From a virus, in the IMG/VR virus record IMGVR_UViG_3300047585_000154, positions 1 through 51,896 of that record: a stretch of DNA of 51,896 nucleotides; one strand, 5' to 3'. The position numbers and the translations under genes were made by a program. The notes beneath the pieces are model-generated. The model did no database searches. It had not been told where the DNA came from and saw only the letters and a program-made list of their open reading frames with translations. This document shows positions 6,448 to 51,896 of this stretch, piece by piece; the first letter of the stretch is position 1, and each line of letters begins with the position of its first letter.

Positions 6448-7265
6448 ACTTCGCTCAGTATCGTCTTGATCACAAGTTCGACAAGGACATGCCGGCGGCG
6501 CTGCGCGCAACGCTGCCCAAGCCTGTTCCCTTCGAGGGCGCAATGCACGCCTTCAAGATGTCCTCTACGTCACAGGCTGGCAGCGACTACGACATCCCCA
6601 ACCAACCGGCGGCCTACGACCAGCTGGATGAAGGCTCCTGCGTCCTCAACTCCACGGTCGGTGCAATGAGCATCGTGCTCGGGGTGGAGAAGCAGGCCGT
6701 TGTGATGCTCTCACGCAACTTCCTCTACTGGCTATGCCGCCTCTCCATGGGCACCACGAGCCAAGACAGCGGGACCTACTCGCACCTGGCCGTGGACCGT
6801 GTGGGCAGCATCGGCGTCTGCTCGGAGAGCACCTGGGCCTACGGAGACGCGACGTTGTACGTGCCGCCCTCCTTGCAGGCGTACAGTGAAGCCTCAGACA
6901 ATAAGGCTACCTCCTGGTTCCAGCTCGACTCACCGCAGGCTGTGACGCCGCGCCTCACGCAGATCGAGGCGTCTGTCCGCTCGAATCACCCGGTCATCTT
7001 CGGCACCCCCGTGGACCAGACCATCCAGACCTACCAGCCTGGGCAGATCCTCACGACCCCGGACTCGAACGCCATCATTGGCGGCCACGAGATGGTGGTC
7101 ACCGGCGTGCACTACGTCAACGGGCAACGCGTCTGGATCTGGCGTAACTCCTGGGGCACGTCCTACGGGAACAACGGCTACCTGATGGTCGATGACAACT
7201 GGATGAACTGGGCGCAACTCCAAGACATCTGGAACATGACTCGGATGAGCCCGCTACTCTTCTAA
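6444..7265 (+). CDS. Papain-family (C1A) cysteine protease
   Basis: This 273-residue protein has a complete papain-type active site. The oxyanion-hole Gln60 and nucleophile Cys66 are in DQLDEGSCVLNS with the classical six-residue spacing. His215 lies in GGHEMVVTGV, and Asn235 in WRNSWGTSYGNNGY. There is no signal peptide or obvious inhibitory prodomain, only ~55 residues before the core. The start is put at 6444 rather than 6438 because the ATG overlaps the lipoprotein stop as ATGA and GGAGG lies 7 nt upstream. It is followed at once by a strong terminator. The target is unknown: it may process virion proteins, attack host proteins or act with the lipoprotein. Confidence 0.85.
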   Translation: MNFAQYRLDHKFDKDMPAALRATLPKPVPFEGAMHAFKMSSTSQAGSDYDIPNQPAAYDQLDEGSCVLNSTVGAMSIVLGVEKQAVVMLSRNFLYWLCRLSMGTTSQDSGTYSHLAVDRVGSIGVCSESTWAYGDATLYVPPSLQAYSEASDNKATSWFQLDSPQAVTPRLTQIEASVRSNHPVIFGTPVDQTIQTYQPGQILTTPDSNAIIGGHEMVVTGVHYVNGQRVWIWRNSWGTSYGNNGYLMVDDNWMNWAQLQDIWNMTRMSPLLF

Positions 7266-11903: not shown

Positions 11904-14900
11904 CTAGATCGTGAGGGTCAAGCGGATGTAGTTGCACGGCAGGGGAACGTCCAACGTAATGTCAACGTCCACCTGGTCGGGCTCCGTTGTGTCCTGCACC
12001 AGGTTGTTCAAGCTCGCACCGATGAGCACACCCGAGTCCGTGAGGAATCCGAGTAGACCCGCAATGACGTGCCCGAGAGAGTCGAGGAAGCCCTGGGTGA
12101 TGTTGAAGCGCCCGATGTAATTCTTCAGGCCGGTGCGCAGGAACTTGGCAACGAAGTCCACAATCTTCGTCACAGAGTCCGTGCGTGTCTCGACAGACGT
12201 CATGTCTGTCGTGAGTGCCATACGGCTGTACAGCGGGGTGCCTGGGCTGTCCTGGATGATGATGTAGTTCCCACCTGCCGCCATGATGTTCATCTGCGAC
12301 TGGCTGAACGTGCCGGTCGAGCCGATGACACTGGTGAACCCAGTCATGGGGAAGTTGGTGAACGACTGCTGCGGAGGCTGTGCTCCAATCATCCCGACAA
12401 TGGCGGCGTTCAAGTAGAAGCCGTCGAGCTGCTGCTGGACACCGTTGATAGTGGCCGAGCACATATCCGGGAAGGTGGACCACACGCGGCGGTTCGCGTA
12501 GCCCTGTGCAATCTCCTGCACAGTCAGCGCGATGTTGTCGTAGTCCGGCATCCCATCCGGGAGCAAGAGTGCTGCACCACGGATGCGGAGCGCGAAGGGC
12601 TCGGAGATGAGCGGTGTCGGAAGCGGCGTAGTGGCGTAGTAGCCATCGTCATTCTGACCGGGCAAGAAGCCCGAGGTCTGGATGGAGAGTACAGACCCGA
12701 CGACGTTGACGACGCTGTAGTGGTTGCCGTCCCCGATGTCGAGGTAGATGCCTGCCGTGACCGAGTAAGGGCCCGTACCAGACTCTCCCTGCGCTACGAG
12801 CAAGGAATCCAGACCCGCGATGCCCGTGTCGAACTGGTTCGCGGTCAGCGTGGTATTGCCATCCGTGCCCGAGGCCACCAGCGTGTCCACGTAGGTGGTG
12901 GGGATAGTCGGATTGATGAGGACGATGCGCTCGCCCTTCTGCTCCGGTCCGCTCATCAACGTGACGTGCGTGTTGAATACCTGGAAGATCGTGGGGTCGT
13001 GGGTCAGCGGGGCGATGCCGTAGACTTCGTAGCTCTCGAGGAACTGTGCGGCGCGCGTGAAGCCGTCGAGCGTGCCGAAGGGAGACCCCTCCGACTCTTC
13101 ATCGACACCGATGCCAGTTACCGCGATGCCCGGTGCATTGAGCAGAGCGAAATAGAAGCCCAGCCCCAGCGGGTTGTCCGAGGTGATGGGGCTCAGGTTC
13201 GTGGCCAGCGTCGTAGTGTCCCCGAAAGAAAGGAGGCCAGCGTTGGCGGCCTGCGCAGTCACATCGAGGCGCAGCGCGCGGTACTGCACGTAGAACTGTG
13301 CGCGTGCCGTGGCGACAGGGTTGCCTTGGATATCGCGAAGAACGTTCGCCTTGATGGTGGCGTCCCCGATGTCATCCACCGTGAGGTTCGGGATGGGCCG
13401 CGTCACGCCGGTGTTGGCGTTGTCGATGCTCAACCCGTTGGCGGTGATGTACCAAGCGTTACCCACGTCGTTCGAGACCGGCACCTGGGTGCTGATCTGG
13501 AGCTGACTCGTGACGCCGCCAGGAGCCACCTTGACGATGGTCGCGTAAGCCGTCCCATCGACCGTGATGGTGTCACCTGGGAGCGGCTGGTAGGGCGCAC
13601 CCGTCACAGTACCCGCTGCTTGGGCAGTGACCAGCCCCAACACGGTAAGCGCGGTGCCTCCGATGATGGTCAGGATGGACTCAGCCCCAAGCTGGGTGCT
13701 CGTGAGCACGAGGTCACCAGAGCCGTTGGTTGTCGCTATGGTCTGTCCGCCAGCAGCCTCACCGAATAGCGCATTGATCTGCGCCTTGATGAGCGTCGGC
13801 GTCGAGGCTCCCAGGAAGGACAGCGTCTGAGGACCCGTACCGTCATCAAGCTCGAGAGTGAGCCCATCCGTCACAACCGTGAGAGCCACGGTCCCAACGA
13901 TGGATGCGCTCCCTGGAGCTGCGGTGAAGTTCACGCCTGGGAAGTTGAGGATGGTGGTGACAGCGGAGCCACTACCCGCGTTGAGTGCCTGCACACCCGC
14001 GATGCCCAGAACTGGAGCACCTGCCGTAAGCCCTAAGTTGGTGAGCGCGGTGCCGCCTGTGAGCTGCAGCGAGTAGTCCGCGCCATACGAGACGTTCTGC
14101 AGCTGCAGAAAGTGACTGGTAGGGAGCTCAGTCGCGGTTGCCAGCGCACCGAGAGAAGAAGTGAACGTGGAGAGGATGTCTCCAATGCTGAGCGGCACAC
14201 CGAAGGTGATGGTGAGCGGCGTCGCACCGTTGAGGGAGATGAGAACCGTCTCCCCATCGAGCTCACCAGCCACGCCCACATGCGGTCCAGTGGACAGTCC
14301 GAGCGCGGTGTTCGCGGTGCCGCCACCCACAGTGATGCTGCCCGCAGCACCAGGCACCAGGTCTGTCAGCGTGAGGAAAGTCGCTACCACCGTGGGGTCA
14401 ATCGCGGGCCACTCCACCGCGATGGCGGCAAGCAACGTTGACTCGCTAGCCGCGTTGCCTGTGCCCACCAGGTCGAGCGTGAGCGCTCCCGCTCCGTTGA
14501 CGTTGAGGATGAGCGTTGTGCCGTCCAGCGTGCCGCCCCCGCCGTACAGCAGGCCGGAGGTGACATCCGTATCACCGGTCACTGTCGCGTACGTTGCGTA
14601 CGTGATGGCAGTGAGCGCCACGTCACCTGTGATGGTGGCCTGCGTGCCGATGCCGTTCTGCAAAAACGCGGACGTCTGCGTAACCTCGAGCAACGCGCTG
14701 CCGAGACCCGCACCACCGAGGAAAAGGAAGACACGAACAGTGTCCGGCTCCACAACGATCTCGGCGATGTTGTTGTTCGGGTCGGGAAAGCTCTCGATGA
14801 GGATGGGTGTGATGTCCTGGGTGTAGAAACTAGCACCCGTGTACTCACGCCCAACGGAGAAGCCGAACGCAGCAAGAACCGCGGGGTCCGTGCCAGTGAC

Positions 14901-15350
14901 AACCACGATGGTCTGGAAGTCATCCGCCGCCGTAGAGCGGATGCGCCACTGGGTGGTGCCTACCGCCTCCACGATGTAGTTCACGATGCTGTTGGCTGCG
15001 AAGACCGCCTGAATCGTGGCCACAACCTGGGCCGGAGACAGTGGGGTACCCGCGAACTCAATGGTCAGCGGCGGCCCATTCCCAAGGGAAAGCACGAGGT
15101 CGAGACCGTCGAGCCCCGCATACACCGGGGGCGTACCCACAGCAGGCACTGCGACGAGCGCTGCCTGAAGCGGTACTTGTGCCTCGCTGTTGAGGACCTG
15201 CGCACCAGCAGCATTGGTGGTCAGAACATCGACTTCCTGGCGGCAGACACCAACGATGCACGGAACAAGCGTGGGCGTGATGACCGTCGGCGTGGTCGCC
15301 GAGAACTGCTGTATGACTTCAACCCCGGGCTGGGGCAACGATGCGGCCAT
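11904..15350 (-). CDS. Tail sheath protein, unusually long
   Basis: This 1148-residue protein starts with a typical sheath N-terminus (MAASLPQPGVEVIQQF, PTLVPCIVGVC) and ends with a typical sheath C-terminal domain (FLRTGLKNYIGRFNITQGF, QVDVDITLDVPLPCNYIRL). The sheath polymer contracts around the tube to drive DNA injection. It is far longer than T4 gp18 (659 residues). The extra length is a string of beta-rich inserted domains between about residues 60 and 620. At least three end in GTANTALGL- or GGTALTxLGL-like motifs, so they look like repeats. The ATG at 15350 has GGAG upstream. HNH genes flank it on both sides. Confidence 0.9.
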   Translation of the reverse strand: MAASLPQPGVEVIQQFSATTPTVITPTLVPCIVGVCRQEVDVLTTNAAGAQVLNSEAQVPLQAALVAVPAVGTPPVYAGLDGLDLVLSLGNGPPLTIEFAGTPLSPAQVVATIQAVFAANSIVNYIVEAVGTTQWRIRSTAADDFQTIVVVTGTDPAVLAAFGFSVGREYTGASFYTQDITPILIESFPDPNNNIAEIVVEPDTVRVFLFLGGAGLGSALLEVTQTSAFLQNGIGTQATITGDVALTAITYATYATVTGDTDVTSGLLYGGGGTLDGTTLILNVNGAGALTLDLVGTGNAASESTLLAAIAVEWPAIDPTVVATFLTLTDLVPGAAGSITVGGGTANTALGLSTGPHVGVAGELDGETVLISLNGATPLTITFGVPLSIGDILSTFTSSLGALATATELPTSHFLQLQNVSYGADYSLQLTGGTALTNLGLTAGAPVLGIAGVQALNAGSGSAVTTILNFPGVNFTAAPGSASIVGTVALTVVTDGLTLELDDGTGPQTLSFLGASTPTLIKAQINALFGEAAGGQTIATTNGSGDLVLTSTQLGAESILTIIGGTALTVLGLVTAQAAGTVTGAPYQPLPGDTITVDGTAYATIVKVAPGGVTSQLQISTQVPVSNDVGNAWYITANGLSIDNANTGVTRPIPNLTVDDIGDATIKANVLRDIQGNPVATARAQFYVQYRALRLDVTAQAANAGLLSFGDTTTLATNLSPITSDNPLGLGFYFALLNAPGIAVTGIGVDEESEGSPFGTLDGFTRAAQFLESYEVYGIAPLTHDPTIFQVFNTHVTLMSGPEQKGERIVLINPTIPTTYVDTLVASGTDGNTTLTANQFDTGIAGLDSLLVAQGESGTGPYSVTAGIYLDIGDGNHYSVVNVVGSVLSIQTSGFLPGQNDDGYYATTPLPTPLISEPFALRIRGAALLLPDGMPDYDNIALTVQEIAQGYANRRVWSTFPDMCSATINGVQQQLDGFYLNAAIVGMIGAQPPQQSFTNFPMTGFTSVIGSTGTFSQSQMNIMAAGGNYIIIQDSPGTPLYSRMALTTDMTSVETRTDSVTKIVDFVAKFLRTGLKNYIGRFNITQGFLDSLGHVIAGLLGFLTDSGVLIGASLNNLVQDTTEPDQVDVDITLDVPLPCNYIRLTLTI

Positions 15351-23486: not shown

Positions 23487-24611
23487 TCAGTAGGTGTTGA
23501 CCTGGGGGAAGAACAGGCCGGCATCGACCTGGTTGTTCGGGGCGCCGAGTGCGTCCTCGCTGAGCGGGATGAAGTTCGTGAGCAGCCCGTCCGCATTCGT
23601 GACGGGGTTCGCGTCTGCCGAGTAGAGCTCGAGCTTGCGAACCGCCGCGATGTTCAGTAGGCCCATGCCCACATCTTCCCAAGCCTGGAACGTGATGACG
23701 TTCGCAATCTTGTCGATGTAGAACTTCGTGTTGTTCAGGATGTAGAACTTCCCGAAGAACTCCGGCTTGGTGAAGACGTAGATGTTCCCCGGGCGGAGAA
23801 TGTCCGTCTTGATGGTACGGATGTACGCACGTCCGAGGAGCGTGTTGTACTTGTACCCATCGACCGCGGTCTCGGATTGAATCCGGTCGCCGAAGTCCTC
23901 GACTGTCCACTGAAGAACGTCGTCCCAGTCTACCTCGGTCGTGAGCAGACGCTCCGAACGCAGGCGGTTCCCGTCCAACAGCTTGAACAGGTTGACGAGG
24001 TCGGGACGCTGAACTGGGCGCACCGTCGCATCGTTCGTGGTGGCCGTACGAGCAAGGTCACCCTTGCGGATGGAGAACTCGACGACTCCGCCAGCCTTGA
24101 TGGTGGTCGCGTTGAGCGCTGTAGCAACGCCCCCGTTGGCCTGCATCTGGAGGGACTGGCACGCGGCTTCCGTGTTGATCGTGAACTCATGGTCCTCGAT
24201 CTCCTGGATGTCCTTCACCGAGTTCTCCTCGATGATCTTGGTGATGGGCATCTCGTAGGCGAGAAGCTCCTGTTCCGTCTTCTGGAACACTTCGCTGCTG
24301 ACCGTGAAGAACCCGATCTCAGCCTTGGGGCCTCGGATGAAGCGAGCCGTGGGGGTGCCACGGAAGCCCATCGTCATGGCCTTTGACTGAGGCTCGATGT
24401 CCACGATCTTGACGAGCGTGTCGTGGTTGACGGACCGCTGGCAGTCCGTGCGGGTGACCTGCTCCGGAGGAAGAATCTTCCGGGTGAAGGACACTTCGCG
24501 AAGTCGGTCGCGGATGTACGAGCCTCCGTACTCCGCGAGCTTCTCCTTGCTGTCGGACGAGCCGAGCTTGGTGGTGAACAGGTCGTTGAGAACGCGTGCC
24601 GGAACACTCAT
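23487..24611 (-). CDS. Major capsid protein
   Basis: This 374-residue protein fits an HK97-fold major capsid protein. It has an N-terminal arm (MSVPARVLNDLFTTKLG, YIRDRLREVSFTRKILPP), a long beta region (MGFRGTPTARFIRGPKAEI), a spine-like helix (EELLAYEMP-type, IIEENSVKDIQEIEDHEF) and C-terminal strands (NIYVFTKPEFFGKFYIL, ITFQAWEDVGMGLLNIAAV). No cleavable delta domain is obvious. The ATG at 24611 has AAGAGG upstream. Its neighbours are a beta-rich decoration candidate upstream and a terminator hairpin downstream. It is among the safest virion assignments after sheath and terminase. Confidence 0.85.
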   Translation of the reverse strand: MSVPARVLNDLFTTKLGSSDSKEKLAEYGGSYIRDRLREVSFTRKILPPEQVTRTDCQRSVNHDTLVKIVDIEPQSKAMTMGFRGTPTARFIRGPKAEIGFFTVSSEVFQKTEQELLAYEMPITKIIEENSVKDIQEIEDHEFTINTEAACQSLQMQANGGVATALNATTIKAGGVVEFSIRKGDLARTATTNDATVRPVQRPDLVNLFKLLDGNRLRSERLLTTEVDWDDVLQWTVEDFGDRIQSETAVDGYKYNTLLGRAYIRTIKTDILRPGNIYVFTKPEFFGKFYILNNTKFYIDKIANVITFQAWEDVGMGLLNIAAVRKLELYSADANPVTNADGLLTNFIPLSEDALGAPNNQVDAGLFFPQVNTY

Positions 24612-31365: not shown

Positions 31366-32097
31366 ATGAAGGCAGACCTCAGCGCCTATGTGACTCGACA
31401 CGAAGCTGCCGAGCTGATGGGAGTACACGTAGACACCGTCACCAAGTGGACCCTCAGAGGGCGCCTTGTCTCGGAAACGTTCCGTGGTGCAAGCCAGGGG
31501 CGACCACAGGTCTACTACTTGCGCTGCCACATCATGGAGGTACTCGCCGCCATGGATGACGGTAACGACGTATGCCGCACTCGAGACCTTGCCATCCGCG
31601 CGCTGGCTATCTCCTCGAGCAATGAGCGGCGCCTCATCGAGATCTACGACGCCATGGGTCTGGGTGTGGAACCGCTGGCTCGCGACCCGGACTCCATGCA
31701 CGAGCTCTACGCCTCCACGTACGAAACACCGTACGCGCCACAGCTACGTGCGGTGCAATGGGTGCGCTTCTGGGCCAGCAGCTTCTTCGCCATGGAGACG
31801 AATTACCTACATCTCGCGAGCGAGGTGGCGCACAACCCAGATATCTGGTTGCACTACGTCAACTTCGCAGACCTCATAGAGAAACGCGCGCGCAACCTGG
31901 TGGAGCATGACCTACGTAGCGACCCTGAGCTGGCACACGCGTACAACTATTTGTCCGCGGCGAAGAAACATCTCGTCTATCAGGGCTTCGCGTACTGCGT
32001 GCAGAAGTACTCAATGGAGGTCGCCATAGCCAAGCTGGGCAAGCAGCGCGACCCCGTCAACGAGCTCTGCGCACTCCTAGCTACCCCTGGTTCGTAG
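31366..32097 (+). CDS. MerR/Nu1-like winged-helix DNA-binding protein
   Basis: This 243-residue protein begins MKADLSAYVTRHEAAELMG, and continues VHVDTVTKWTLRGRLVSE and GRPQVYYLRCHIMEVLAAM. That is a MerR/excisionase-type winged helix of the kind also found in lambda Nu1. The C-terminal ~170 residues are helical with no recognised domain. The start at 31366 has GAGG 5 nt upstream; an in-frame ATG at 31315 with GGAGG is an alternative but overlaps the divergent gene. The gene is convergent with the terminase large subunit (17-nt overlap). It may be a terminase small subunit or a regulator. Confidence 0.65.
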   Translation: MKADLSAYVTRHEAAELMGVHVDTVTKWTLRGRLVSETFRGASQGRPQVYYLRCHIMEVLAAMDDGNDVCRTRDLAIRALAISSSNERRLIEIYDAMGLGVEPLARDPDSMHELYASTYETPYAPQLRAVQWVRFWASSFFAMETNYLHLASEVAHNPDIWLHYVNFADLIEKRARNLVEHDLRSDPELAHAYNYLSAAKKHLVYQGFAYCVQKYSMEVAIAKLGKQRDPVNELCALLATPGS

Positions 32098-33958
32098 GCC
32101 CTGTGTTGCCGGTACGCAGTGGACCCTGGTTCGGCAGCTCCCTGTTTGGGGCGATGATGTCTGGACGCGGGTACATCAGCATGGACGCGAGGAAGCAGTA
32201 GGTCGTGGAGTGCAGCGTATCGTCCGGACGGTCTGGCCGGTGGTCGTACTGAATCATCCGCAGCTGGTTGTTATACTTTGCGAAGACGTTCAAGAAGTCC
32301 TGCGCGTACGGGTCCTCGAAGTCTGACCAAGCGGGAAACGTCAGCTGCCTACGCTTGATGGCGTTGAAGATGTCGCTCAGCACCTCAGTGCGCACAGCCT
32401 GAAAGCGACGGAAGTTGCCCTTCCACTCGAGCTTCTTCTTGCCGCGAGCCATCCACTGATACTTCCACACACGCTTGGGCCCAAAGAGACGGGTCAACCG
32501 GTCATTGGGGTGGAAGCCTCCGCCGTAGTCCGTGCCGATAAGCCGCACGTTGAAATACTGGATCATCTGCGCGATCTTCGTGAGCTGCGGCTCTGGGTCT
32601 ACGTCTTCACCGGTGAAGCGGTGCGCGTAGAAGATGGTGAACTTGCTGTTCACGTACATGCCCAGCGTGAGCACCGTGTAGCTGTTCTCTCCGGTGCCCC
32701 AGTCGATACCCGCAAACACGGCAGTGGCCGCACTCAGCTCCTTGTACTTCTCGAGGTACTTCGGCGTCATCGGGTCGCCGATGCAGACGTCCCGCATCTG
32801 CTGCCGCGTAAGGGGTCGCAGGCCAGAGTCGTACGAAATACCGAGCACCTCGTTGTAAAAGCGCGCCCTGTCGTAGCGACCGTAGTCGAGCATGATCTCA
32901 TCCCATGACCGCCATGGAACCATCAGCTGCGGGATGCGGTAGTTCTCGAAGATGCCCTTCTCCTGCGTCATCGCCCAGCACGCATCTGCGTGCATGGGGT
33001 CAATGAGCTGATGGCACTTCTCGCACGAGAGGCCCTTCTTCTGGATGTTCCTCTCGCCCAGGATGTTCCAGTACCGGCCACCCTCCCCGCCGTGCCTGTC
33101 GCAGGGGACCATCCACTCCCCCATTGTGGACATCGGGGTACCGTCTTTGGCCGTGCCGCTACGGTAGAACTCGAGGGAGTTATCCAGGCTTTTGGGCGTA
33201 CCGGCGTAGATGAAGCTCTTCCAGCGCTCTGGCGCGTGGCTAGTGGCCTGCTCGATGACCGGGATGTTGTCCGATAGGATGTCCTGAAGCTCGTCGATTA
33301 GCAGACGCCAGGCCGGGATGCCTCGAATGCGGTCGGCGTTGAGGAAGGCGTACCGCAGCGTAATCTTCGCGCGATTCACGAACTGCTTCTCGAAGACGTT
33401 CTGCTGTAGCAACGTCGTGGTGAAGCCCTTCAGGATATCGCTGGTCTCCAGCGGCTCCTTCAACCGGTCTACAGAGAAGGTCTTGGTCTGCGTGGCCGAA
33501 GGTGAGACGTAGAGCGTACGGTACCCAGGAACTAGACAGGAGTACGCAATGGCCGAGTTGCCTAGCAGGGTGGACTTCTCTACCTGCCGTCCACACGTCA
33601 GAAGGACACGACGCGCAGACGTGTTGTAGATCTTGCGCATGTGCCGACGGCCATCAAAGGTGAACGGCCCGTACCCCTCACCGTCGCTCCTCGGCATCCG
33701 AAAGGAGTACTCGGTGAACTCCGCTGGCAGTACACTGCCCATCTCCTGGATGATGGAGTTTTCGTCGTCGAACAACGCCGCTGCATCACCACATGGGTCC
33801 TCGGCGATGGTCCATCCTGTCGCGCGTATCTCGTCGTCTAGCTCCTCCTCTGCGATATCCTCTGCGATATCCTCCTCAGTGAAGGGCACGGCGCCACTCA
33901 CGATTGACGATGCAGGTGAGACGCTTAGGCTAGTGTTCACGAGGACCCATGTTTCCAC
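32081..33958 (-). CDS. Terminase large subunit (GpA-like)
   Basis: This 625-residue protein packages DNA into proheads. The ATPase half has a deviant Walker A CGRQVEKST at residues 122-130 and Walker B LLIDELQD at 219-226. A Cys pair region (VPCDRHGG at 285-291, SCEKC at 311-315) resembles the zinc-like site of GpA-type terminases. The nuclease half shows acidic residues in GIDWGTG (Asp419), IGTDYGGG (Asp477) and PDDTLHS (579-580). The first ~75 residues are acidic and variable. The modelled start is a GTG at 33958 without a clear ribosome-binding site, so the true start may lie downstream. Its start overlaps a divergent gene. Confidence 0.92.
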   Translation of the reverse strand: METWVLVNTSLSVSPASSIVSGAVPFTEEDIAEDIAEEELDDEIRATGWTIAEDPCGDAAALFDDENSIIQEMGSVLPAEFTEYSFRMPRSDGEGYGPFTFDGRRHMRKIYNTSARRVLLTCGRQVEKSTLLGNSAIAYSCLVPGYRTLYVSPSATQTKTFSVDRLKEPLETSDILKGFTTTLLQQNVFEKQFVNRAKITLRYAFLNADRIRGIPAWRLLIDELQDILSDNIPVIEQATSHAPERWKSFIYAGTPKSLDNSLEFYRSGTAKDGTPMSTMGEWMVPCDRHGGEGGRYWNILGERNIQKKGLSCEKCHQLIDPMHADACWAMTQEKGIFENYRIPQLMVPWRSWDEIMLDYGRYDRARFYNEVLGISYDSGLRPLTRQQMRDVCIGDPMTPKYLEKYKELSAATAVFAGIDWGTGENSYTVLTLGMYVNSKFTIFYAHRFTGEDVDPEPQLTKIAQMIQYFNVRLIGTDYGGGFHPNDRLTRLFGPKRVWKYQWMARGKKKLEWKGNFRRFQAVRTEVLSDIFNAIKRRQLTFPAWSDFEDPYAQDFLNVFAKYNNQLRMIQYDHRPDRPDDTLHSTTYCFLASMLMYPRPDIIAPNRELPNQGPLRTGNTGPTNQG

Positions 33959-39963: not shown

Positions 39964-42900
39964 TCAATACAGGTGGTCTGCTACATCCTTCAGGTGCCCA
40001 CGCCCCGGCATGAGAGAGTCCTTCTTAGATAACCCAATTTCGCTGCCGAAAGCCAGCGCAGGTACGGGATGATGTCCGTGAATGAGTGAAACACCGTGCA
40101 CTGCCGCTGCTTCTTGCAGCGTTTCACGCAGGTGATTGTGCTGTAGCTTCGCCATCCAGTCCTCGTGGAGCTCACGGGGCATGACGTCGATGCCCTTCAG
40201 TACCGGCGTGTGCTCGATGGGGGCCTTATGCTCTCGAATCAGCTCCTCGTTCATCTTTCGGACAACCGGCAAGGGGCGGAACTCCCCGCGCAACACGCTG
40301 TCGTGGTCACCTGGGTCCTCCACGCGCGTGAGGCTGCCCATGGACTTCACCACCATCTCGATGGCGCGCCTCTTGAGTCCCTCGTTCTTGTAGAGGTTGA
40401 AGATGGAGGTAGTGAGGTGGTCCTGCACGCGGTCCATTGACCCCGTCGCAGCATAGAGGTGGTGCGGGTTCAACACGGTGCGGTTAGGGTCCGACAGATA
40501 AGCGCCGGCCGCCACTTTCATTCCTACCTTCGGCGGTGACCAGTCGATGTAATCCGACATGACAACTGCACCAGGCAGGTTCTCGTGCAGCGTGAAACCA
40601 CCTGCGTCCTTACCTACGTGGTGCTTCTTGCCACCCACGTAGATGTCCACGCCTGTGGCGGTGGGCTGCACCTTATCCACGGTGCCGGACACAGCAGAGA
40701 TGGTGGCCTGGTTCGCCAGCTTCTTCGGCAGCCGCAACAAGTTGTCGAAGTGTGCGAACGCACTGAGTAGCTTGGAGCTGTTCTGCTCACCAACGCCACC
40801 CGTGTGGAAGCTCTTCAGGGTGAGCTGCACCGCGCGCTCCCCCACGGCGTGTGCCGCCTGTACCCCCACGTTGGTGCCGAGCTCGTAGTGCTGCCCGCCC
40901 GATGTCAGGCCCGCGCACTTCTGACAGACGCCATGCTCTTCCTCGCACTTCAGCGGTGAACGCACAGTGATGAATGCATGCGGGTCTACTGCACGAATCT
41001 TACCCACGTCCGCCGGGGTGAGCGGGCTATTTGCAGAGATGTGCACCTTGCCATGGATGAAGTCCTTCTGCAGGTAACGGTCGTGCACGTCAGGCTCGTT
41101 GATGCTGAGCTGGATGCCATCCTTCGTGCCGCAGTCATGCTCGTTCACAAGAACGTTCATCATGTTCTGCATGAGGACCTTCGAGAGAGCGCCAGGTTTC
41201 TCAACTTCCTGCACCTTCATGACCTGCCCACGGCGAGCTCCGTGCAGCTGGGTCCAGTAGCTGCCCATGTCGAGCCCCTCGGAGTAGCTCTTCGTCACCG
41301 CGTTGGGGATGGGACGGTTGTGCGCGTCCAAGTAGATCATCGGCGCCAGCACCATCTGCTTGTACTGGTCCCAGCCCGGCTTCACTCCGGCCTTGTACAT
41401 CGTGAAGAGGTTGGTCGGATGCGCTTCCTGGCTTTTCACATGCAGCTTCTGCATGTCCGTGGCGGCTTGTTCGTAGACCTTCACCACCTGATGGTCCTGC
41501 TGTGCCTTCGTGAGTTTGGTGTCTGCGCGGATGCCCTTCGCCTTCTCTTCAGCAGGGCCCAGCACACGCTCGCGCGATGCGACATCGGGCACGAAGTCCT
41601 TGAGCGACAGCGAGTGCGTGGGCATGGGTATGAAGATGCTCTTGCTCGGGTCCGTCACCGCGACGTGGGTTCCATCGAGCTTGCTGAACGCGAAGGGATG
41701 CCCCACGCTCGTGGGTCGTGGCACCATCACCGAGCCAAAGGACGCCCCATTGCCCAGGTCTTTGAGCTTATTCACGGCACTGCCGTAACTGTCAGAGTGC
41801 TCCTTCGCGATCTTCATCAAGAGCGCGTCCAGCCCCTTCGTCCCGCCATCCTTCTTGCTGGCGTTGTCGAGGCGGTACTCCATGTTGTGCATCATGTGCT
41901 TCTCGAGCGGCTCTGGCACTGCGCTCGCGAGCAGCACACGCCCTGGCGTTGTCTCACCGCCTGGCAGGTGCACTTTGTCGGTGATGTCGATGGTCCCCTT
42001 CTGCGCAGCCTGCAGCACCTCCGCTGGATTCGAGAACTTCTTCCCTGTGTCCTTCCCCACGACCGAGAGCTTGTAGAGCCCGAGCGCGCTCTCCAGCGTC
42101 GGCTGGTACATACTCTTCCCCGAGGCATCGCTGAACAGGTTGTTCGAGGGGAACATCTTGCGTGCCTCAGCCACGGCCTCGCGCGTGATGGGCACGTACG
42201 CACTCATTGTGTCGCCGTCGAAGTCCGCGTTGAAACCACCCGTCACCAGGGGGTGAATCTTGATAGCGCTACCCTCCACGGTGTGCGGCTTGAACGCCTG
42301 GATGCTGTACTTGTGGAGCACAGGATCGCGCTTCAACAAGACAGGGTGCTCTGCCATAGCCTTGTCTAGCGCTCGCCACACCTGCGGGGTGGGCTTAGCT
42401 AGCAAGGGCGGCACCTCGAGCTCAGAGCGTACCGCACCCATTTCCTTCAGCTTGCGAGACACAAAGGGTCGATAGAGGTCCAGCGCCGCAGCCTTGGGTA
42501 GCCCAACTTCATCGAGTCCCAGCGACGGCTCCGGTACAATCGTGGACCGCATCGAGAGGTCCTGGCGACGACGTAGCAGCACATGCTGGAAGTAGCCGTG
42601 CTTAGGCGAGCTGCCCGCGATGCGATGGAGGATGCCCTTCTCTTTGACGTCGCCGTACGGCGCGCCCACACCCATGAGCGCCTTCACACCGTCGTAGTAC
42701 TCGAAGCGCATGTCGCGCTTTCCCTCGTCAGTGAGATTGGCCGACCAGATGGGGTCCTTCAGCTTGTCGTTGACCTTTGCGAAGTCGGAGTACAGCTGAT
42801 TGAGGTCATCGGGCTTGAGATTGCCGTCGGGCATCGGCGTGATGGGTCGCATGATGGGCGGAATCACGGGCAGGTTATGCAGGATGTACGCCTCGCTGGG

Positions 42901-45900
42901 CTTCAGCCTAAGCCCACTCAGCGCGCGCAAGAACTTCACGCGCTTCAGCGCGGGGTCGATCTTCACGCCCTTCGCTGCGTCCAGCGCCATCTGTGCGAGA
43001 GGCAACTCCTTGCGCACGTCTACCCTGTCGAGCAGGAGCTTGATGCCAGCGCCTCCAGTGACGCCAGCCTTGAGATCCGTGAGCTGTCCCGAGGGGGAGA
43101 CGCCGCGCTCCCCGTGCACGACTGACTCAAACTCCTTGCTACTCAGCTGCGCCACGCTGCGGATGGCCCTCTCGAAAAACGGGTTGGGCAGCGGTTCGCT
43201 GAGCTCGATGCGCGTCCAATGCTTCCCACCGTGTCCCCCGGTGAGGCGCTCATCGAAGAGCCCACCAGTCTTCGGCTTGAGCTCACCTTTGGCGTCAATC
43301 TTGGTGTTCACACGTTCTGCCGGATGCGGCAACGCCTTCGGCGCGAGCTCTAGTACCTGCGCGTCAGTCATCGGCGAAAGTGCGATGCTATGTCCGTTCT
43401 TGTCCACGTTCACACCGGCAGCGCGCAGCATGTCGGTGAACTTCTGGTAGGCGAATGTCGGCTTGGGTGGCGGCAGTAGTCCACCCGACTGGATGGCAGC
43501 CCAGACCTTGTTGTGATCGCTGGGCCACGCCTTGCGTGGGTCTGTCTGCGGGTCCGGTCCCTCGGACTTGTACGTCTGCATCTCGCGCAGGTTGGCCTTC
43601 GCACCGTGAGCTAACAAAGCGTACAGGTCCAGTCCGCCAATAGATGGTCCACCAGTACCGGACCCGCCCAGGGGCTGGAGGTTCAGGTCGTAGCCCTCAT
43701 GCTGCATACCTGGGACGTTCATCCCGCTGCGCACCGAAAGCTTCTTCTCCACCTGGTGCACAAGCTTGAGCAGATGCTGCGGTCCCACGAGTGCCTTGCC
43801 CAGCGACTGCTTGGTGGCTGGGTCGAAGAGCTCCTCGGTATCGCTGATGTCGTGCGCCTTGAGGTCAGCGATGACCTTGTGCAACGCGTCGAACTTCGGC
43901 TGGAAGTTCTGCACGATGTACGGCTTGCCTGTCTTCTGCGCGATCTTCCCGGCCGCGGTCTCGAGCACCTGCCCCACGTTCATACGACCCGGAACACCCG
44001 AGGGGTTCAGCGCCACCTCGATGTGCTTGCCGTCCTTCGTGTGCGGCATCTCCACGTTCGGTAGAATCATCGTAACAATGCCTTTGTTGCCGTAGCGGCC
44101 CGCCATCTTGTCGCCCACCTGCATGGGCTCCACAGTGCGGACATGCACAGTCACGCCGTCCTTGGTGTGGTGCACGCCAACGACGTCACCCTCGAACTCG
44201 CTGTCCCATCGCAAGCTCTTGTCCGTGTGCGATGCGCTCATGACTCGGCGGATGGCCGCCAGCCCCGTACGATCCTTGAGCTGGTAGGGCTTCATCGCTG
44301 CAATGAGCGGGTCACCGGGCTTCACCTTCTGCCCCACCTGAATGATGCCCCTGTCGTCGAGCTTGCTGATCTGCTCCTTGTTGTAGAGCCCGTGATGCTC
44401 CAGCAAGAACTTCTTCTTGTCGAGTACCACCGCGTCATCCAGCGGCATCGAGGGCTTGTGCATGTGCGCACTCGACAATGCCTCTGCAGCACTTTGACTG
44501 ATGACCACGCCGTCCTCGAAGTTGTACCCCTTGAAGGGGATGTACGCGACGCGTAGGTTGTTCCCCAACGCCAGCACGCCGTTCTTCGAGTAGTTCGTGT
44601 CAGCGACGACCTGCTTCTTCTTCACATGGTCGCCAACCTTCACGATGGGCGTGGAGTCCAACACGCCCTTCGCTTCGTTGACCGGGAAGTTGTCGTAGAT
44701 CTGCACCTCGTGTGACTTGCCGTCATCGCTGAGGATGGTGACGCCGTCCTTCTTCACCGCGGTGACCTTGCCGTTCACTGGCGATACGTGTGATGTCAGC
44801 CCGCCCATCAGGTGCTCAAAGGTCTGCCCTCCCTCGAGCGAGGAGCCGGTGCCCACCTGCACTAGCGGGGGCGCACGGTGCACCAGTGAAATGGCCTGCT
44901 CCATGTGACGACTTGCCATGGAAGCACGGCCACCCGACGTGTTCGCCAGGAAGGGGAGCAGATTCGACGTCATGTTGAAGAGCTGACTCGGGGAGCGCAC
45001 CACGTACTGCGCCTCCGAGAACTTGCCGTGGCGTACGTCGTCCCCACCACCTGTCATCTGCACCGAATCTGCGATGGGCTTGGGGACGCCATTCTCCCAG
45101 CGCACCTGATCCGGCAAAACGATGTGCACCTTTGATGCCTCTCCCGGTGACACCAGGTCCAGCTTGTGCGTCTTCAGGTTGTAAAGCGGGATGCGCGCTT
45201 CACCGCGGGGCTCCCCGTTCACCATGTGGTCCACCTTCTGCAGACCGAAGGGCAGACGTAGGGTCACGCCAGTAGACGCGCCCTCGGGAGTGTTGATGGG
45301 GTCGAGGAAGCCGAGGTGGCTGACGTTGACGAACTTGACCTCGTCCTTGATCTGCCGGTCGCTCTGGATGCCACCAGGACCCATGACCGTGGTCTGGAAA
45401 GAGGCAGCCAGCATCTCCACCGGGTTGATCTGCGCGGCAGGTCCGGCAGCTGCGTTCTTCTGAAAGGTCTCTAGGATAGGCTTGTTGAACATGCCGAGCT
45501 GGATGACATCGCGCACGTTCTTCGCGGTACTGATCTTCGAGGCGACCTTACGCTGGATGCCCTTGCGTCCTGCCTCCAGAATGCGCTCGTAGGCGAAGTC
45601 GCCCACCGACCGCAGGTCCTTGAAGATGAGCGACTCGCGGTCATCTTCTTTCTCACCGCCCTGCACCCGCAACAGCTTTTGCGTTGCACGTGTGAGTGCA
45701 TCCCCAGTCACGTGCTCGAACGGTTTGCCCAGCGTGAGCTCGGTGGAGTCGGGCCGCAGTGTGGATGCGGTCATCATGTCGTAGAAGTGTGCCGCAGCAA
45801 TCTCCCTGTTGGGGGCTACTTCCTTCTTCGTGCTCTTGTAGAAGGTGTTGAGCGCGTTGTCCTTCTTTGCGGCGTCCTTGTTCGCCTCGAAGACCTCCTT

Positions 45901-46476
45901 GCCCCATGCCTTCTCCAACGTGGCATCATCGGCCCCGAGAGTCTTCACCAGGCTGTACAGAGGAATCTTGCTGGCGCTCTTCCCATACTCCATGTGGAAG
46001 ACTTTGCTGGCCGGGTCGAAGACCACGTCGAAGCTCTTGCGATTCTTGATGTTGAAGCGTGTCTCGAGCTCTCCGTTGGTACGGCGCTGTGTATAGACGC
46101 CTGGCTTCAGCTGCCACTGGTTGTTGACCTGGTACTCCTTCGCTCCACTACGCGACGCCACGACGTAGGAGTACCGTTGTGTCATCTTTGGGATGTCCGC
46201 TATGCGCATACGCCGCGCATCCACGACCTTGCCGGTCGCGTTGTCTCGCAGCGACAGGTCCGCGTACACAGGCACCGACCACGTCCTGCCTTCTAGCCTG
46301 GCCTTGTGCTGGTCGCGGATGTCCCCCGGGTCGAGGTCGTCCTTGATTGTGAGCCCCTCAAGATGAAGCGACTGCAGCTTCCCCTTGATGACACCGTCAG
46401 GGAATTGGCTCCTGATCCCTTCCAATACGCGCTGTTGGAGGTTCTCAGACGCTTCCTTGGGATCGAGATAGGACAA
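39964..46476 (-). CDS. RNA polymerase, fused beta and beta-prime subunits in one chain
   Basis: This protein of ~2170 residues contains a full bacterial-type beta followed by a full beta-prime. In beta: NTPEG at ~395-399, NLLPFLANTSGGRASM, IPFKGYNFEDGVVIS, GDKMAGRYGNKG at ~788-799 and the C-terminal LYALLAHGAKANLREM. In beta-prime: GGLFDER, clamp-helix region LPVIPPIMRPITP, catalytic NADFDGD at ~1416-1422, a bridge-helix region WDQYKQMVLAPMIYLD, trigger loop SEGLDMGSYWTQLHGARRG, zinc site 2 (Cys1782, 1844, 1851, 1854) and QLTLKSFHTGG. The first beta-prime zinc ribbon is absent. The start is put at the TTG at 46476 because GAGGAGG lies 6 nt upstream. No sigma or alpha is nearby. Confidence 0.95.
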   Translation of the reverse strand: MSYLDPKEASENLQQRVLEGIRSQFPDGVIKGKLQSLHLEGLTIKDDLDPGDIRDQHKARLEGRTWSVPVYADLSLRDNATGKVVDARRMRIADIPKMTQRYSYVVASRSGAKEYQVNNQWQLKPGVYTQRRTNGELETRFNIKNRKSFDVVFDPASKVFHMEYGKSASKIPLYSLVKTLGADDATLEKAWGKEVFEANKDAAKKDNALNTFYKSTKKEVAPNREIAAAHFYDMMTASTLRPDSTELTLGKPFEHVTGDALTRATQKLLRVQGGEKEDDRESLIFKDLRSVGDFAYERILEAGRKGIQRKVASKISTAKNVRDVIQLGMFNKPILETFQKNAAAGPAAQINPVEMLAASFQTTVMGPGGIQSDRQIKDEVKFVNVSHLGFLDPINTPEGASTGVTLRLPFGLQKVDHMVNGEPRGEARIPLYNLKTHKLDLVSPGEASKVHIVLPDQVRWENGVPKPIADSVQMTGGGDDVRHGKFSEAQYVVRSPSQLFNMTSNLLPFLANTSGGRASMASRHMEQAISLVHRAPPLVQVGTGSSLEGGQTFEHLMGGLTSHVSPVNGKVTAVKKDGVTILSDDGKSHEVQIYDNFPVNEAKGVLDSTPIVKVGDHVKKKQVVADTNYSKNGVLALGNNLRVAYIPFKGYNFEDGVVISQSAAEALSSAHMHKPSMPLDDAVVLDKKKFLLEHHGLYNKEQISKLDDRGIIQVGQKVKPGDPLIAAMKPYQLKDRTGLAAIRRVMSASHTDKSLRWDSEFEGDVVGVHHTKDGVTVHVRTVEPMQVGDKMAGRYGNKGIVTMILPNVEMPHTKDGKHIEVALNPSGVPGRMNVGQVLETAAGKIAQKTGKPYIVQNFQPKFDALHKVIADLKAHDISDTEELFDPATKQSLGKALVGPQHLLKLVHQVEKKLSVRSGMNVPGMQHEGYDLNLQPLGGSGTGGPSIGGLDLYALLAHGAKANLREMQTYKSEGPDPQTDPRKAWPSDHNKVWAAIQSGGLLPPPKPTFAYQKFTDMLRAAGVNVDKNGHSIALSPMTDAQVLELAPKALPHPAERVNTKIDAKGELKPKTGGLFDERLTGGHGGKHWTRIELSEPLPNPFFERAIRSVAQLSSKEFESVVHGERGVSPSGQLTDLKAGVTGGAGIKLLLDRVDVRKELPLAQMALDAAKGVKIDPALKRVKFLRALSGLRLKPSEAYILHNLPVIPPIMRPITPMPDGNLKPDDLNQLYSDFAKVNDKLKDPIWSANLTDEGKRDMRFEYYDGVKALMGVGAPYGDVKEKGILHRIAGSSPKHGYFQHVLLRRRQDLSMRSTIVPEPSLGLDEVGLPKAAALDLYRPFVSRKLKEMGAVRSELEVPPLLAKPTPQVWRALDKAMAEHPVLLKRDPVLHKYSIQAFKPHTVEGSAIKIHPLVTGGFNADFDGDTMSAYVPITREAVAEARKMFPSNNLFSDASGKSMYQPTLESALGLYKLSVVGKDTGKKFSNPAEVLQAAQKGTIDITDKVHLPGGETTPGRVLLASAVPEPLEKHMMHNMEYRLDNASKKDGGTKGLDALLMKIAKEHSDSYGSAVNKLKDLGNGASFGSVMVPRPTSVGHPFAFSKLDGTHVAVTDPSKSIFIPMPTHSLSLKDFVPDVASRERVLGPAEEKAKGIRADTKLTKAQQDHQVVKVYEQAATDMQKLHVKSQEAHPTNLFTMYKAGVKPGWDQYKQMVLAPMIYLDAHNRPIPNAVTKSYSEGLDMGSYWTQLHGARRGQVMKVQEVEKPGALSKVLMQNMMNVLVNEHDCGTKDGIQLSINEPDVHDRYLQKDFIHGKVHISANSPLTPADVGKIRAVDPHAFITVRSPLKCEEEHGVCQKCAGLTSGGQHYELGTNVGVQAAHAVGERAVQLTLKSFHTGGVGEQNSSKLLSAFAHFDNLLRLPKKLANQATISAVSGTVDKVQPTATGVDIYVGGKKHHVGKDAGGFTLHENLPGAVVMSDYIDWSPPKVGMKVAAGAYLSDPNRTVLNPHHLYAATGSMDRVQDHLTTSIFNLYKNEGLKRRAIEMVVKSMGSLTRVEDPGDHDSVLRGEFRPLPVVRKMNEELIREHKAPIEHTPVLKGIDVMPRELHEDWMAKLQHNHLRETLQEAAAVHGVSLIHGHHPVPALAFGSEIGLSKKDSLMPGRGHLKDVADHLY

Positions 46477-46554
46477 GGCGTGCCTCCTCGTCAGCGTACT
46501 CCGCTGCGTGAAAGCGGTGCAAGCCGCGCGTAGATACGGGAACAAGGATCATGC
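46477..46554. promoter_or_regulatory. Divergent region between RNA polymerase gene and MoxR/VWA cassette
   Basis: These 78 bases separate the TTG start of the polymerase gene and the ATG of the first cassette gene, so they should hold promoters for both. GAGGAGG (leftward ribosome-binding site) and AAGGA (rightward) are visible, as is an inverted repeat CCGCT-N7-AGCGG around 46501-46517. I do not see clear sigma70-type boxes. Confidence 0.4.
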
Positions 46555-47391: not shown

Positions 47392-47972
47392 CACTAGCTC
47401 CAGAGCTGCGCCGAGACTCCGGTTACGAATGCGCGGATAGTGACTGCGAAGCAACCATCTATTACGGCGAGGAAGCCGTGCTGCTCCAGGTGGCGCTCGT
47501 ACAACAAGGAGACGGAGAGCTCCTGAAGTACCCCGTGTTGGATGAGGATGACCCAGCGCGCGACTTCTTGTTCGAGCCGCACTACTTCTGCACAGAGTGC
47601 TGGCAGAAGACCTACGACTTCATCGTAGGTGAGCTGGCAGACACACCACCTATCTACGACCCGATGAGCAAGCTGGTCTGTGACTGCTGTGGCAGTGGCA
47701 TACGCGAATGCGTCGAGTACACCGGGGTCGCCGAAGTAGGTGAGTTCAGGCGGTCACGCCGCTCACCAGATTGCCTGTACGGCCCACGCTTCGAGACGAC
47801 CTCCAAGCCGATGATGCTTTGCCTGAGCTGCCTCCTGGTCATCAGTGAGGGGTACATCGAACTCTGGTCCAACCTGACACAGACCGACGAATGCATCGAC
47901 TGCAGCACTGCACGCTGCTGGCGAGCACCTTGTAGCTGCACCTGCCACTCCAACACGGGAACTACCGAATGA
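47376..47972 (+). CDS. Cys-rich, probably zinc-binding protein, 198 aa
   Basis: The start at 47376 is supported by AAAGGAGG about 8 nt upstream. Cys residues are arranged as pairs or clusters: ECADSDCEA near the N-terminus, FCTECW near residue 75, VCDCCGSGIREC near 105, LCLSCL near 150, and a terminal cluster DECIDCSTARCW, CSCTCHSN. This looks like several zinc ribbons or knuckles. It is coupled to the MoxR ATPase by a 4-nt overlap, suggesting a partner in the same system. The function is unknown. Confidence 0.65.
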   Translation: MEQGLTLAPELRRDSGYECADSDCEATIYYGEEAVLLQVALVQQGDGELLKYPVLDEDDPARDFLFEPHYFCTECWQKTYDFIVGELADTPPIYDPMSKLVCDCCGSGIRECVEYTGVAEVGEFRRSRRSPDCLYGPRFETTSKPMMLCLSCLLVISEGYIELWSNLTQTDECIDCSTARCWRAPCSCTCHSNTGTTE

Positions 47973-50500: not shown

Positions 50501-50525
50501 AAGAAGGGCCTGCGCCCTTCTTTTT
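50501..50525. terminator. Bidirectional terminator between VWA and portal genes
   Basis: AAGAAGGGC (50501-50509) and GCCCTTCTT (50514-50522) form a perfect 9-bp stem with a four-base loop, followed by TTT on the plus strand; the mirror A/T-rich flank serves the minus strand. It lies between two convergent genes and overlaps the portal stop codon. Confidence 0.85.
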
Positions 50526-51896
50526 AGCCCATACCACCTGCACGCCGCGGCGGTCGCTGCTGCGGCAAAGGTCGCGTGTCCACACCCGCCACGGCTCCAG
50601 AACCTGCCGCGCCACCTGTGCCGGAGTCATCCCCACCCTGTTGCTGCGTGAGGTACTGCTGCACCAGGTCTGCTAGCTCGGGGCTCTGGAAACGCAGATT
50701 GGTGATGGCCTGCGACTGCTGCGCCTTCGGCAACGTAGCGATGGTGCGCGCCTGCATCATCGCAAGCGATGGCAGGTCCACGTTCTGCGTGGGCTGCCCT
50801 CCTCCCGCGCCCTGCATCTTCTGCCCACCAGAGAGTTGGCTGCCAATCTGCTGCAGGAAATCCGGAGGTGAGGAGCCGCCGTTAGCGGGCGTCTGTTGTT
50901 GCTGCGCCTGTTGCTGTTGAGGCTGACCTTCTCCAGGTTGCCCCTGCTGTGCTGGCGCGGGTGCTCCGGTAGGCACTGCGCCTTCCGCGCCGCCAGGCTC
51001 CCCCGGTGCGGTGGGCGCTCCCATCGCGGTCGCCTGTTCCTGCTGCGCACGCGCCTGGTACTTCATCATCACGAGTTGCGCCTCACCCTGGATGGTGGCC
51101 ATCGCAATCTGCTGCTTCTTGGTGGCCTCGAGCCGCGTATCGGTCTCGCGGATCATGATCTGGTTCTCGTCCTCCTGGGACATGTCGGAGCTCGCCAGAA
51201 GCGTCGTGTCGCTGATCTTGCCGGCTGCGTTGAGTTGGAACTCGAACGCCTTGCGCTGTAGGTCGTCTGCCATCTTGAACGGCTTGAAGCGGATGTTCGC
51301 GAGGGGCCAGCCCAGATACGAAGACACCTGGCGCATGATGAAGCGAGCGAGGTCGCGCTGTCGCTGTAGGTACCCGATGAACATGTTCTCGAGCATGCGC
51401 ATCGATACGTTCGTGCCCGCGTAGCTCATGCCGCCCATGAGGAATTCACGAGGCACTCCCATGCCGACCATGATCTGCTCCGACCATGCCTGAATCTCTT
51501 GCGTCAGTAGCAGCGCGCGTCCGTCACCACCGATGGTCTGATTGCCCACAGGCAGCGGGAGGATGGGGATGTAGTTGTTGTCCGTGCGCCAGCGAGCAAT
51601 CTCTTGAGCAATCTGGTCGCGCCAGTCGATGAGGTTGATGGTGGTGTACGGGTCCGAGCTGCCCGAGCCTGCCTGCGGGAAGAGCACGCGCAGCGGCACA
51701 ATGTGTTCGACGAGGATGGCCTCCTGCGCTTTCTTCATGATCTGCAAGTAGAAGGTGTCCTTCAGCACCGGCAGAAGAAGAGGCACACCCACGCCGCGGT
51801 CCTGACCGGCCAAGGTCGGACGACGCATGTGGAAGAAGTTGTCCTTCGAGAAGATGACACCCTTCTGCTCGCGCATGGCCTGAATGAAGACCTGCG
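50524..51896 (-). CDS. Portal protein, N-terminus cut by window edge
   Basis: About 456 C-terminal residues are visible and the frame remains open to the edge, so the start lies outside. The core reads LPLPVGNQTIGGDGRALLL, then QAWSEQIMVGMGVPREFLM, GTNVSMRMLENMFIGYLQR and AGKISDTTLLASSDMS, a typical portal region with the wing and stem helices. The C-terminal ~180 residues are Gln/Pro/Gly-rich and disordered (QQQQAQQQQTPANGGSSP). It forms the dodecameric DNA gate of the head. It is separated from terminase and capsid genes by the MoxR/VWA cassette and the polymerase. Confidence 0.85.
   Translation of the reverse strand, partial: QVFIQAMREQKGVIFSKDNFFHMRRPTLAGQDRGVGVPLLLPVLKDTFYLQIMKKAQEAILVEHIVPLRVLFPQAGSGSSDPYTTINLIDWRDQIAQEIARWRTDNNYIPILPLPVGNQTIGGDGRALLLTQEIQAWSEQIMVGMGVPREFLMGGMSYAGTNVSMRMLENMFIGYLQRQRDLARFIMRQVSSYLGWPLANIRFKPFKMADDLQRKAFEFQLNAAGKISDTTLLASSDMSQEDENQIMIRETDTRLEATKKQQIAMATIQGEAQLVMMKYQARAQQEQATAMGAPTAPGEPGGAEGAVPTGAPAPAQQGQPGEGQPQQQQAQQQQTPANGGSSPPDFLQQIGSQLSGGQKMQGAGGGQPTQNVDLPSLAMMQARTIATLPKAQQSQAITNLRFQSPELADLVQQYLTQQQGGDDSGTGGAAGSGAVAGVDTRPLPQQRPPRRAGGMG

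What the first reader, a model, noticed from the sequence alone, without database searches (positions are those of the whole stretch)
39964..46476. Single-chain phage RNA polymerase: complete beta fused to complete beta-prime
One open frame of ~2170 codons runs from beta landmarks (NTPEG, GDKMAGRYGNKG) straight into beta-prime landmarks (NADFDGD, bridge helix, trigger loop, second zinc site) with only a short junction near residues 970-1070. Known phage multisubunit-type polymerases are mostly split into several genes (phiKZ-like), while known single-chain ones (YonO-like, crAss-like) are much more divergent from bacterial beta/beta-prime. Natural rpoB-rpoC fusions exist in Helicobacter and Wolbachia. 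A fused enzyme this close to the bacterial pattern in a tailed phage is unusual and would be a simple two-in-one transcription machine.
Basis: partly seen in the sequence, partly recalled or inferred. Interest (0 to 1): 0.88.

Follow-up and report, generated by a model that had tools for sequence, protein, structure and literature searches.

The report
Single-chain bacterial-type phage RNA polymerase
This phage gene makes one 2,170-residue protein in which the two big halves of the bacterial RNA-making enzyme are joined end to end; the same one-piece enzyme runs through a large, little-described group of big tailed phages, and in a cultured relative a closely similar enzyme is packed into the virus particle.

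Summary
One uninterrupted frame (46476..39964, TTG start behind GAGGAGG, 2,170 codons) is bacterial-type RpoB joined to RpoC, with the catalytic residues kept. The join is a tight turn where bacterial beta ends and beta-prime begins. Beta-prime is not quite complete: zinc finger 1 is missing in all 64 relatives examined, and several sigma-contact positions have changed. It is not a sequencing artefact, and not rare: 50+ distinct metagenomic phage contigs (33-85% identity) carry the same single ORF. A sister group (Salmonella phage Arash, Vibrio phage D69) keeps the join but has beta-prime cut after the active site. Arash's fused piece is the protein most often detected in its virions (100% peptide coverage). 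No phage alpha subunit was found in 23 records, but 21 of 23 encode a divergent sigma-like protein whose Arash homologue is also in virions. Best reading: a virion-packaged, sigma-assisted one-chain polymerase that starts phage transcription without host RNAP. Packaging and sigma dependence are inferred for this phage. The family very probably overlaps the published 'mReC' RNAPs, whose paper does not mention their fusion. New variant of a known kind.

The parts
39964..46476 (-). Single-chain beta-beta-prime RNA polymerase gene, 2,170 codons plus stop, TTG start
   Evidence: Open frame; family models; conserved as one ORF in 50+ contigs
46483..46489 (-). Shine-Dalgarno GAGGAGG, 6 bases before the TTG start
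   Evidence: Read; start position agrees with the family alignment
43396..46476 (-). Beta (RpoB-like) half, residues 1-1027
   Evidence: NCBIfam RpoB 4e-103; aligns to cyanobacterial beta over nearly its whole length
44512..44517 (-). Beta E654-D655 (E. coli E813-D814)
   Evidence: Invariant in 57 fused sequences
44080..44115 (-). Beta catalytic lysine motif GDKMAGRYGNKG, K790 and K798 (E. coli K1065, K1073)
   Evidence: K790 in 57/57 and K798 in 56/57 fused sequences
43372..43413 (-). Junction, residues 1022-1035: beta C-terminal strand, tight turn, beta-prime N-terminal strand; no flexible linker
   Evidence: Alignment to bacterial beta end and beta-prime start; modelled as a hairpin with pLDDT 86-93
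39967..43389 (-). Beta-prime (RpoC-like) half, residues 1030-2170, lacking zinc finger 1
   Evidence: NCBIfam RpoC 1e-119; model pLDDT 87, Foldseek TM about 0.78 to bacterial beta-prime; zinc finger 1 absent in 64/64
42211..42231 (-). Catalytic NADFDGD, D1418/D1420/D1422
41161..41268 (-). Bridge helix
   Evidence: Mapped from E. coli beta-prime 769-804
40915..41133 (-). Zinc site 2: C1782, C1844, C1851, C1854
40795..40827 (-). Trigger-loop helix QLTLKSFHTGG with H1891
   Evidence: Q and H invariant in 57/57 fused and 7/7 split sequences
50524..51894 (-). Portal protein, upstream of the RNAP as in phage Arash (open at the window end)
   Evidence: Family HMM hits Arash portal at 2e-77
32081..33958 (-). 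Terminase large subunit
   Evidence: phrog_675 1e-44; Arash TerL 6e-73
23487..24611 (-). Major capsid protein
   Evidence: phrog_2522 9e-8; Arash major capsid protein 8e-37
11904..15350 (-). Tail-sheath-like structural protein
   Evidence: Matches Arash virion protein gp236 at 8e-35; 'sheath' is an inference from size and position

Best explanation
A bacterial-type two-barrel RNA polymerase core made as a single polypeptide. Beta comes first; its last strand turns directly into the first strand of beta-prime, so the two halves fold against each other as in bacteria and share one active centre (three aspartates from beta-prime, two lysines and an E-D pair from beta). Being covalently joined, it probably needs no alpha dimer to assemble. 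It is most likely packed into the virion, injected with the DNA, and directed to phage promoters by the phage's own divergent sigma-like protein, so early phage transcription does not depend on host RNAP. Shown: single ORF across many phages, residue conservation, loss of zinc finger 1, confident fold of two overlapping fragments, no alpha gene found, near-universal sigma-like partner gene, and in the relative Arash full peptide coverage of the joined piece in virions. Inferred: packaging in this phage, pairing of the sigma-like protein with the polymerase, rifampicin insensitivity, activity.
For: Frame and start. Family models for RpoB and RpoC in one chain. Same single ORF in 50+ contigs at 33-85% identity. 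Catalytic residues conserved; zinc finger 1 missing in 64/64 phage sequences but present in 15/15 bacteria. AlphaFold of residues 340-1500 (across the join) pLDDT 85.5, pTM 0.75, and of 1010-2170 pLDDT 87.1, pTM 0.82; Foldseek best matches are bacterial beta and beta-prime. Alpha (PF01193) in 0 of 23 phage records with 13 of 14 controls ringing. Sigma-like family in 21 of 23, with Pfam Sigma70_r3/r4 support. Arash paper PMC10585845: Gp206 is the most detected virion protein (3,516 spectra, 128 peptides, 100% coverage), Gp216 1,210 spectra, sigma Gp10 467 spectra. Shared virion module with Arash: portal 2e-77, TerL 6e-73, capsid 8e-37. Inteins inserted in catalytic motifs of relatives suggest an essential protein.
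Against: No experiment on this phage or any fully fused member. Arash is from the sister clade with beta-prime cut in two, so packaging is by analogy, and its authors note the enzymes could be carried over from high expression. Clamp-helix sigma contacts (R275, E295) and flap F906 are not conserved, so sigma binding may differ or be absent. The sigma-like gene lies outside the window; two linear records lack it. No promoter motif was found. The full chain could not be folded at once, nor active-centre distances measured.
Confidence: 0.75

Rival explanations
1. Single-chain core polymerase made after infection (non-virion), used for middle and late genes, with early genes read by host RNAP.
For: No virion data exist for a fully fused phage; only one RNAP locus was seen in each of three genomes searched, unlike phiKZ-type phages with separate virion and non-virion enzymes.
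Against: The nearest cultured relative's enzyme is the most detected virion protein; the gene sits in the structural module next to the portal.
Confidence: 0.2
2. The chain is cut by a protease into beta and beta-prime and works as an ordinary two-subunit enzyme.
For: Phages of the sister clade make the enzyme from two genes; many virion proteins are processed.
Against: The join is modelled as a tight, ordered hairpin with high confidence and is conserved over the family; Arash Gp206 was reported with 100% coverage as one entry, though this does not exclude cutting.
Confidence: 0.1
3. Recent capture of a naturally fused bacterial rpoB-rpoC gene (as in Helicobacter or Wolbachia).
For: Fused bacterial genes exist; two more turned up here, L138 Caldisericota and L135 SKW160.
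Against: Phage sequences form one deep clade apart from all 15 bacteria, the two fused ones included; the bacterial fusion whose junction was read (L138) keeps zinc finger 1 and has a longer linker.
Confidence: 0.02
4. Assembly or sequencing error joining two genes.
For: The record is a metagenome assembly.
Against: 50+ independent contigs show the same single ORF.
Confidence: 0.005

Closest known systems
mReC: multimeric RNAP-encoding Caudovirales (Weinheimer & Aylward 2020, PMC7481178)
   Same: Tailed-phage beta and beta-prime alignable to cellular ones, NADxDGD motif, deep clade apart from Bacteria, contigs from IMG/VR
   Different: The paper's text never says that the mReC subunits are one chain; the capsid family PF07068 and terminase family PF03237 it reports were not hit here. 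Its sequences are not held, so overlap of the sets could not be checked
Salmonella phage Arash Gp206/Gp216 and Vibrio phages D69, D148, D181
   Same: Beta joined to the beta-prime N-terminal half with the same junction lacking zinc finger 1; same virion module (tested for Arash); homologous sigma-like protein
   Different: Beta-prime is cut after the catalytic barrel and its C-terminal half is a separate gene; about 31-33% identity; in D181 beta is also interrupted by a homing endonuclease gene
Bacterial RpoB/RpoC and fused bacterial RpoBC (Helicobacter, Wolbachia; here L138, L135)
   Same: Domain order, catalytic residues, bridge helix, trigger loop, zinc site 2, flap
   Different: The phage form lacks zinc finger 1, the first ~20 residues of beta-prime, several sigma contacts and rifampicin-pocket residues; no phage alpha gene
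crAss-like phage gp66, YonO, P23-45 gp64/gp96 (single-subunit two-barrel RNAPs)
   Same: Both barrels in one polypeptide; crAss gp66 and P23-45 gp96 are virion enzymes
   Different: Those are highly diverged with little sequence similarity to cellular RNAPs (PMC10770324, PMC7481178); this one is recognised at E<1e-100 by RpoB and RpoC models
phiKZ/AR9-type multisubunit phage RNAPs
   Same: Phage-encoded relatives of beta/beta-prime; a virion form exists
   Different: Split over four or five polypeptides (PMC7598289), no sigma reported (PMC7824862)

Membership tests
Two-barrel (multisubunit-type) RNA polymerase | DxDxD aspartates in one barrel, two lysines in the other | tested here: met
   D1418/D1420/D1422, K790/K798
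Two-barrel (multisubunit-type) RNA polymerase | Bridge helix and trigger loop | tested here: met
   R1748, G1762, Q1884, H1891 conserved
Two-barrel (multisubunit-type) RNA polymerase | Transcription activity | not testable with these tools
   No assay
mReC RNAP clade | Tailed phage with both beta and beta-prime detectable by cellular models, NADxDGD motif | tested here: met
   portal, terminase and capsid
mReC RNAP clade | RNAP falls in one deep phage clade apart from cellular RNAPs | tested here: inconclusive
mReC RNAP clade | Capsid PF07068 and terminase PF03237 (reported for those members where found) | tested here: not met
   terminase hits PF05876, capsid no PF07068; the paper reports 8 capsids and 17 terminases among 97 contigs, so supportive rather than defining
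Bacterial fused RpoBC | Zinc finger 1 and a bacterial position in the tree | tested here: not met
phiKZ-type phage RNAP | beta and beta-prime each split into separate polypeptides | tested here: not met
   Single ORF
YonO/crAss/QDE-1-type single-subunit RNAP | Highly diverged from cellular beta/beta-prime; beta barrel of YonO and relatives lacks the flap insert | tested here: not met
   RpoB and RpoC models match at E<1e-100; flap segment present
Virion RNA polymerase | Protein present in mature particles | not testable with these tools
   Only by analogy with Arash Gp206
Sigma-70-like factor (partner, A4 family) | Sigma region 2/3/4 homology | tested here: met
   Sigma70_r3 above cut-off in two of three members, r4 in one; below cut-off in the closest relative G006

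The most novel reading that the evidence does not exclude
A large lineage of big tailed phages carries, inside the virion, an entire bacterial-type transcription machine reduced to two proteins: a one-chain beta-beta-prime core without alpha or zinc finger 1, plus a dedicated divergent sigma. Phage transcription would then be independent of host polymerase from the first minute.
Probability: 0.5. Interest if true: 0.78.

Novelty: new variant of a known kind. Interest (0 to 1): 0.6.

Why it matters
It would be among the simplest polymerases still close to the bacterial enzyme: one chain, no subunit assembly, ready for structure work and one-gene expression. It tests which bacterial parts (alpha, zinc finger 1, canonical sigma contacts) are dispensable. 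It also suggests that published phage 'beta and beta-prime subunits' used for deep phylogeny are largely one fused protein, and offers a natural series (fused, cut in beta-prime, intein-bearing) for how polymerase subunits join and separate.

Tried and rejected
Plus-strand reading of the coordinates: full of stops. Sequencing error: refuted by independent contigs. Pfam sigma region 2 and 4 searches alone: only patchy hits; superseded by the Arash Gp10-based model. De novo promoter motif in 115 upstream gaps of the window and its closest relative: nothing above shuffled sequence. Whether the uncut beta-prime is ancestral: not settled, as support for the fused clade varies (0.455 in the full tree, 1.0 in the reduced and beta-prime trees, 0.498 with beta alone). 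Viral structure library (BFVD): no match covering both halves among the 50 listed. Paper searches found no description of this phage beta-beta-prime fusion; a hydrothermal-mat paper (PMC10159854) has a gene 'RNAP1' for beta and beta-prime near mReC, without discussing fusion in the passages read.
Full report
Observation. The stretch 39964-46476 is closed on the plus strand. On the minus strand, frame 46545..39964 is open for 2,193 codons. At 61% GC an open frame that long has a chance near 1e-30, and codon-position GC is typical of a gene. The window is a whole virus record of 51,896 bases, probably a genome fragment, since relatives' contigs reach 160-200 kb.

What it encodes. NCBIfam's fused beta/beta' model matches at 1e-137, RpoC at 1e-119 and RpoB at 4e-103; Pfam Rpb2 and Rpb1 domains come in bacterial order. 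Against E. coli RpoB and RpoC, beta E654-D655, K790 and K798, and beta-prime R1383, D1418, D1420, D1422, R1748, G1762, Q1884 and H1891 are kept, as are the four cysteines of zinc site 2. The rifampicin-pocket residues D516 and H526 are replaced, so insensitivity to the drug is predicted (inference).

The junction. Bacterial beta ends with a strand ('LGINIELEDE' in E. coli); beta-prime starts with about 20 residues and then 'AIKIALASPDMI'. Here the two run together as 'AGVNVDKNGHSIALSPMTD'. The model of residues 340-1500 shows helix 1008-1019, strand 1022-1027, strand 1030-1035 and a helix, with pLDDT 86-93. So the join is predicted to be an ordered hairpin, not a floppy linker. Shortly after it, the zinc finger 1 segment (CxC...CxxC) is missing in all 57 fused and 7 split phage sequences and present in all 15 bacteria. 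Clamp-helix contacts R275 and E295 are also replaced.

Fold. Residues 1010-2170 fold with pLDDT 87.1, pTM 0.82, and match bacterial beta-prime with TM about 0.78. Residues 340-1500 give pLDDT 85.5, pTM 0.75 and match bacterial beta. The viral structure library lists only matches that cover part of the fragment.

Distribution. A single-sequence scan of IMG/VR gave 22 loci, 17 of them with one uninterrupted ORF. A profile scan matched 258 stretches, 233 of them relatives; every full-length locus among the 79 kept has beta and beta-prime in one ORF, at 33-85% identity. Some contigs appear in both scans; the distinct fused sequences used for alignment number 56 besides the window. The exceptions, from the first scan and from named phages, are L017-L019, L021/L022, Salmonella phage Arash and Vibrio phages D69 and D181, where the beta-prime C-terminal half is a separate frame (cut near residue 1508). 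In L021 the rest is spread over two frames, and in D181 a homing endonuclease gene interrupts beta.

Tree. With bacteria as outgroup the fused and split phage enzymes form one deep clade (support 0.998-0.999 concatenated, 0.951 beta-prime alone, 0.397 beta alone). Fused and split groups are sisters, with varying support for the fused group (0.455 full set, 1.0 reduced set and beta-prime alone, 0.498 beta alone). Both share the loss of zinc finger 1 and, in most, the join, so the join most simply predates their split; whether the cut in beta-prime is derived or the older state is open.

Partners. RNA polymerase alpha was found in 0 of 23 phage records, with 13 of 14 control genomes ringing. Pfam sigma searches gave patchy hits, but a model from Arash Gp10 and two relatives is found in 21 of 23 records, including the closest relative G006, whose 97-151 kb stretch is colinear with the window. 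Pfam sees sigma region 3 in all three model members (above cut-off in two) and region 4 in one. Among 50,697 phage records only Arash and the three Vibrio phages have strong matches, with weak ones in Synechococcus phages.

Virion link. The Arash paper (PMC10585845) reports Gp206 (the beta plus beta-prime-N chain) as the most detected protein in particles: 3,516 spectra, 128 unique peptides, 100% coverage; Gp216 (beta-prime C) 1,210 and sigma Gp10 467 spectra. The authors allow that this could be carry-over from high expression. The window's portal, terminase, capsid and tail proteins are homologous to Arash's, so the inference to this phage is reasonable but unproven.

Comparison with the known. 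mReC (PMC7481178) is the nearest published group. This protein meets its detection criteria, but its text does not mention fusion of the mReC subunits, its sequences are not held, and the capsid and terminase Pfam families it reports were not hit here. Single-chain two-barrel enzymes are known (YonO, crAss gp66, P23-45), but those are highly diverged; the P23-45 paper (PMC10770324) mentions 'derivatives with fused DPBB domains' in the cellular-type clade without naming them in the text read. phiKZ-type enzymes are split into four or five chains (PMC7598289). Hence: new variant of a known kind, not categorically new.

Noticed in passing
L010 group, L066, L070, L089, L098, L101 (RNAP ORFs): Probable inteins of 330-420 aa sit in catalytic motifs of relatives' polymerases: at GDKM/GNKG, after NADFDGD, after TPEG and in the trigger loop; L089 carries three in one 3,259-aa protein.
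   Followed up: partly
L138:4426-12231 and L135:2924-10753: Bacterial rpoB-rpoC in one ORF (2,602 and 2,610 aa) in a Caldisericota MAG and bacterium SKW160, beyond Helicobacter and Wolbachia; both keep zinc finger 1.
   Followed up: partly
L026:2911-8479 versus L024:7911-12548: In Vibrio phage D181 a homing endonuclease gene interrupts the beta part that is intact in D69.
   Followed up: no
47969-50497: A MoxR-like AAA ATPase and a DUF2201 metallopeptidase/VWA protein, opposite in strand, wedged between portal and RNAP; relatives have homologues, the Arash stretches searched do not.
   Followed up: partly
L203:1429-2265 (G006 61429-62265): Divergent sigma-like protein family present in 21 of 23 of these phage records, mostly missed by Pfam region 2 and 4 models.
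   Followed up: yes
6438-7265: Protein with the look of a papain-type cysteine peptidase (WRNSWGTSYGNNGYLMV near the end), read by eye only.
   Followed up: no
303-836: HNH-like protein similar to ORFs in the closest relative G006 and to a locus of phage record G018.
   Followed up: no
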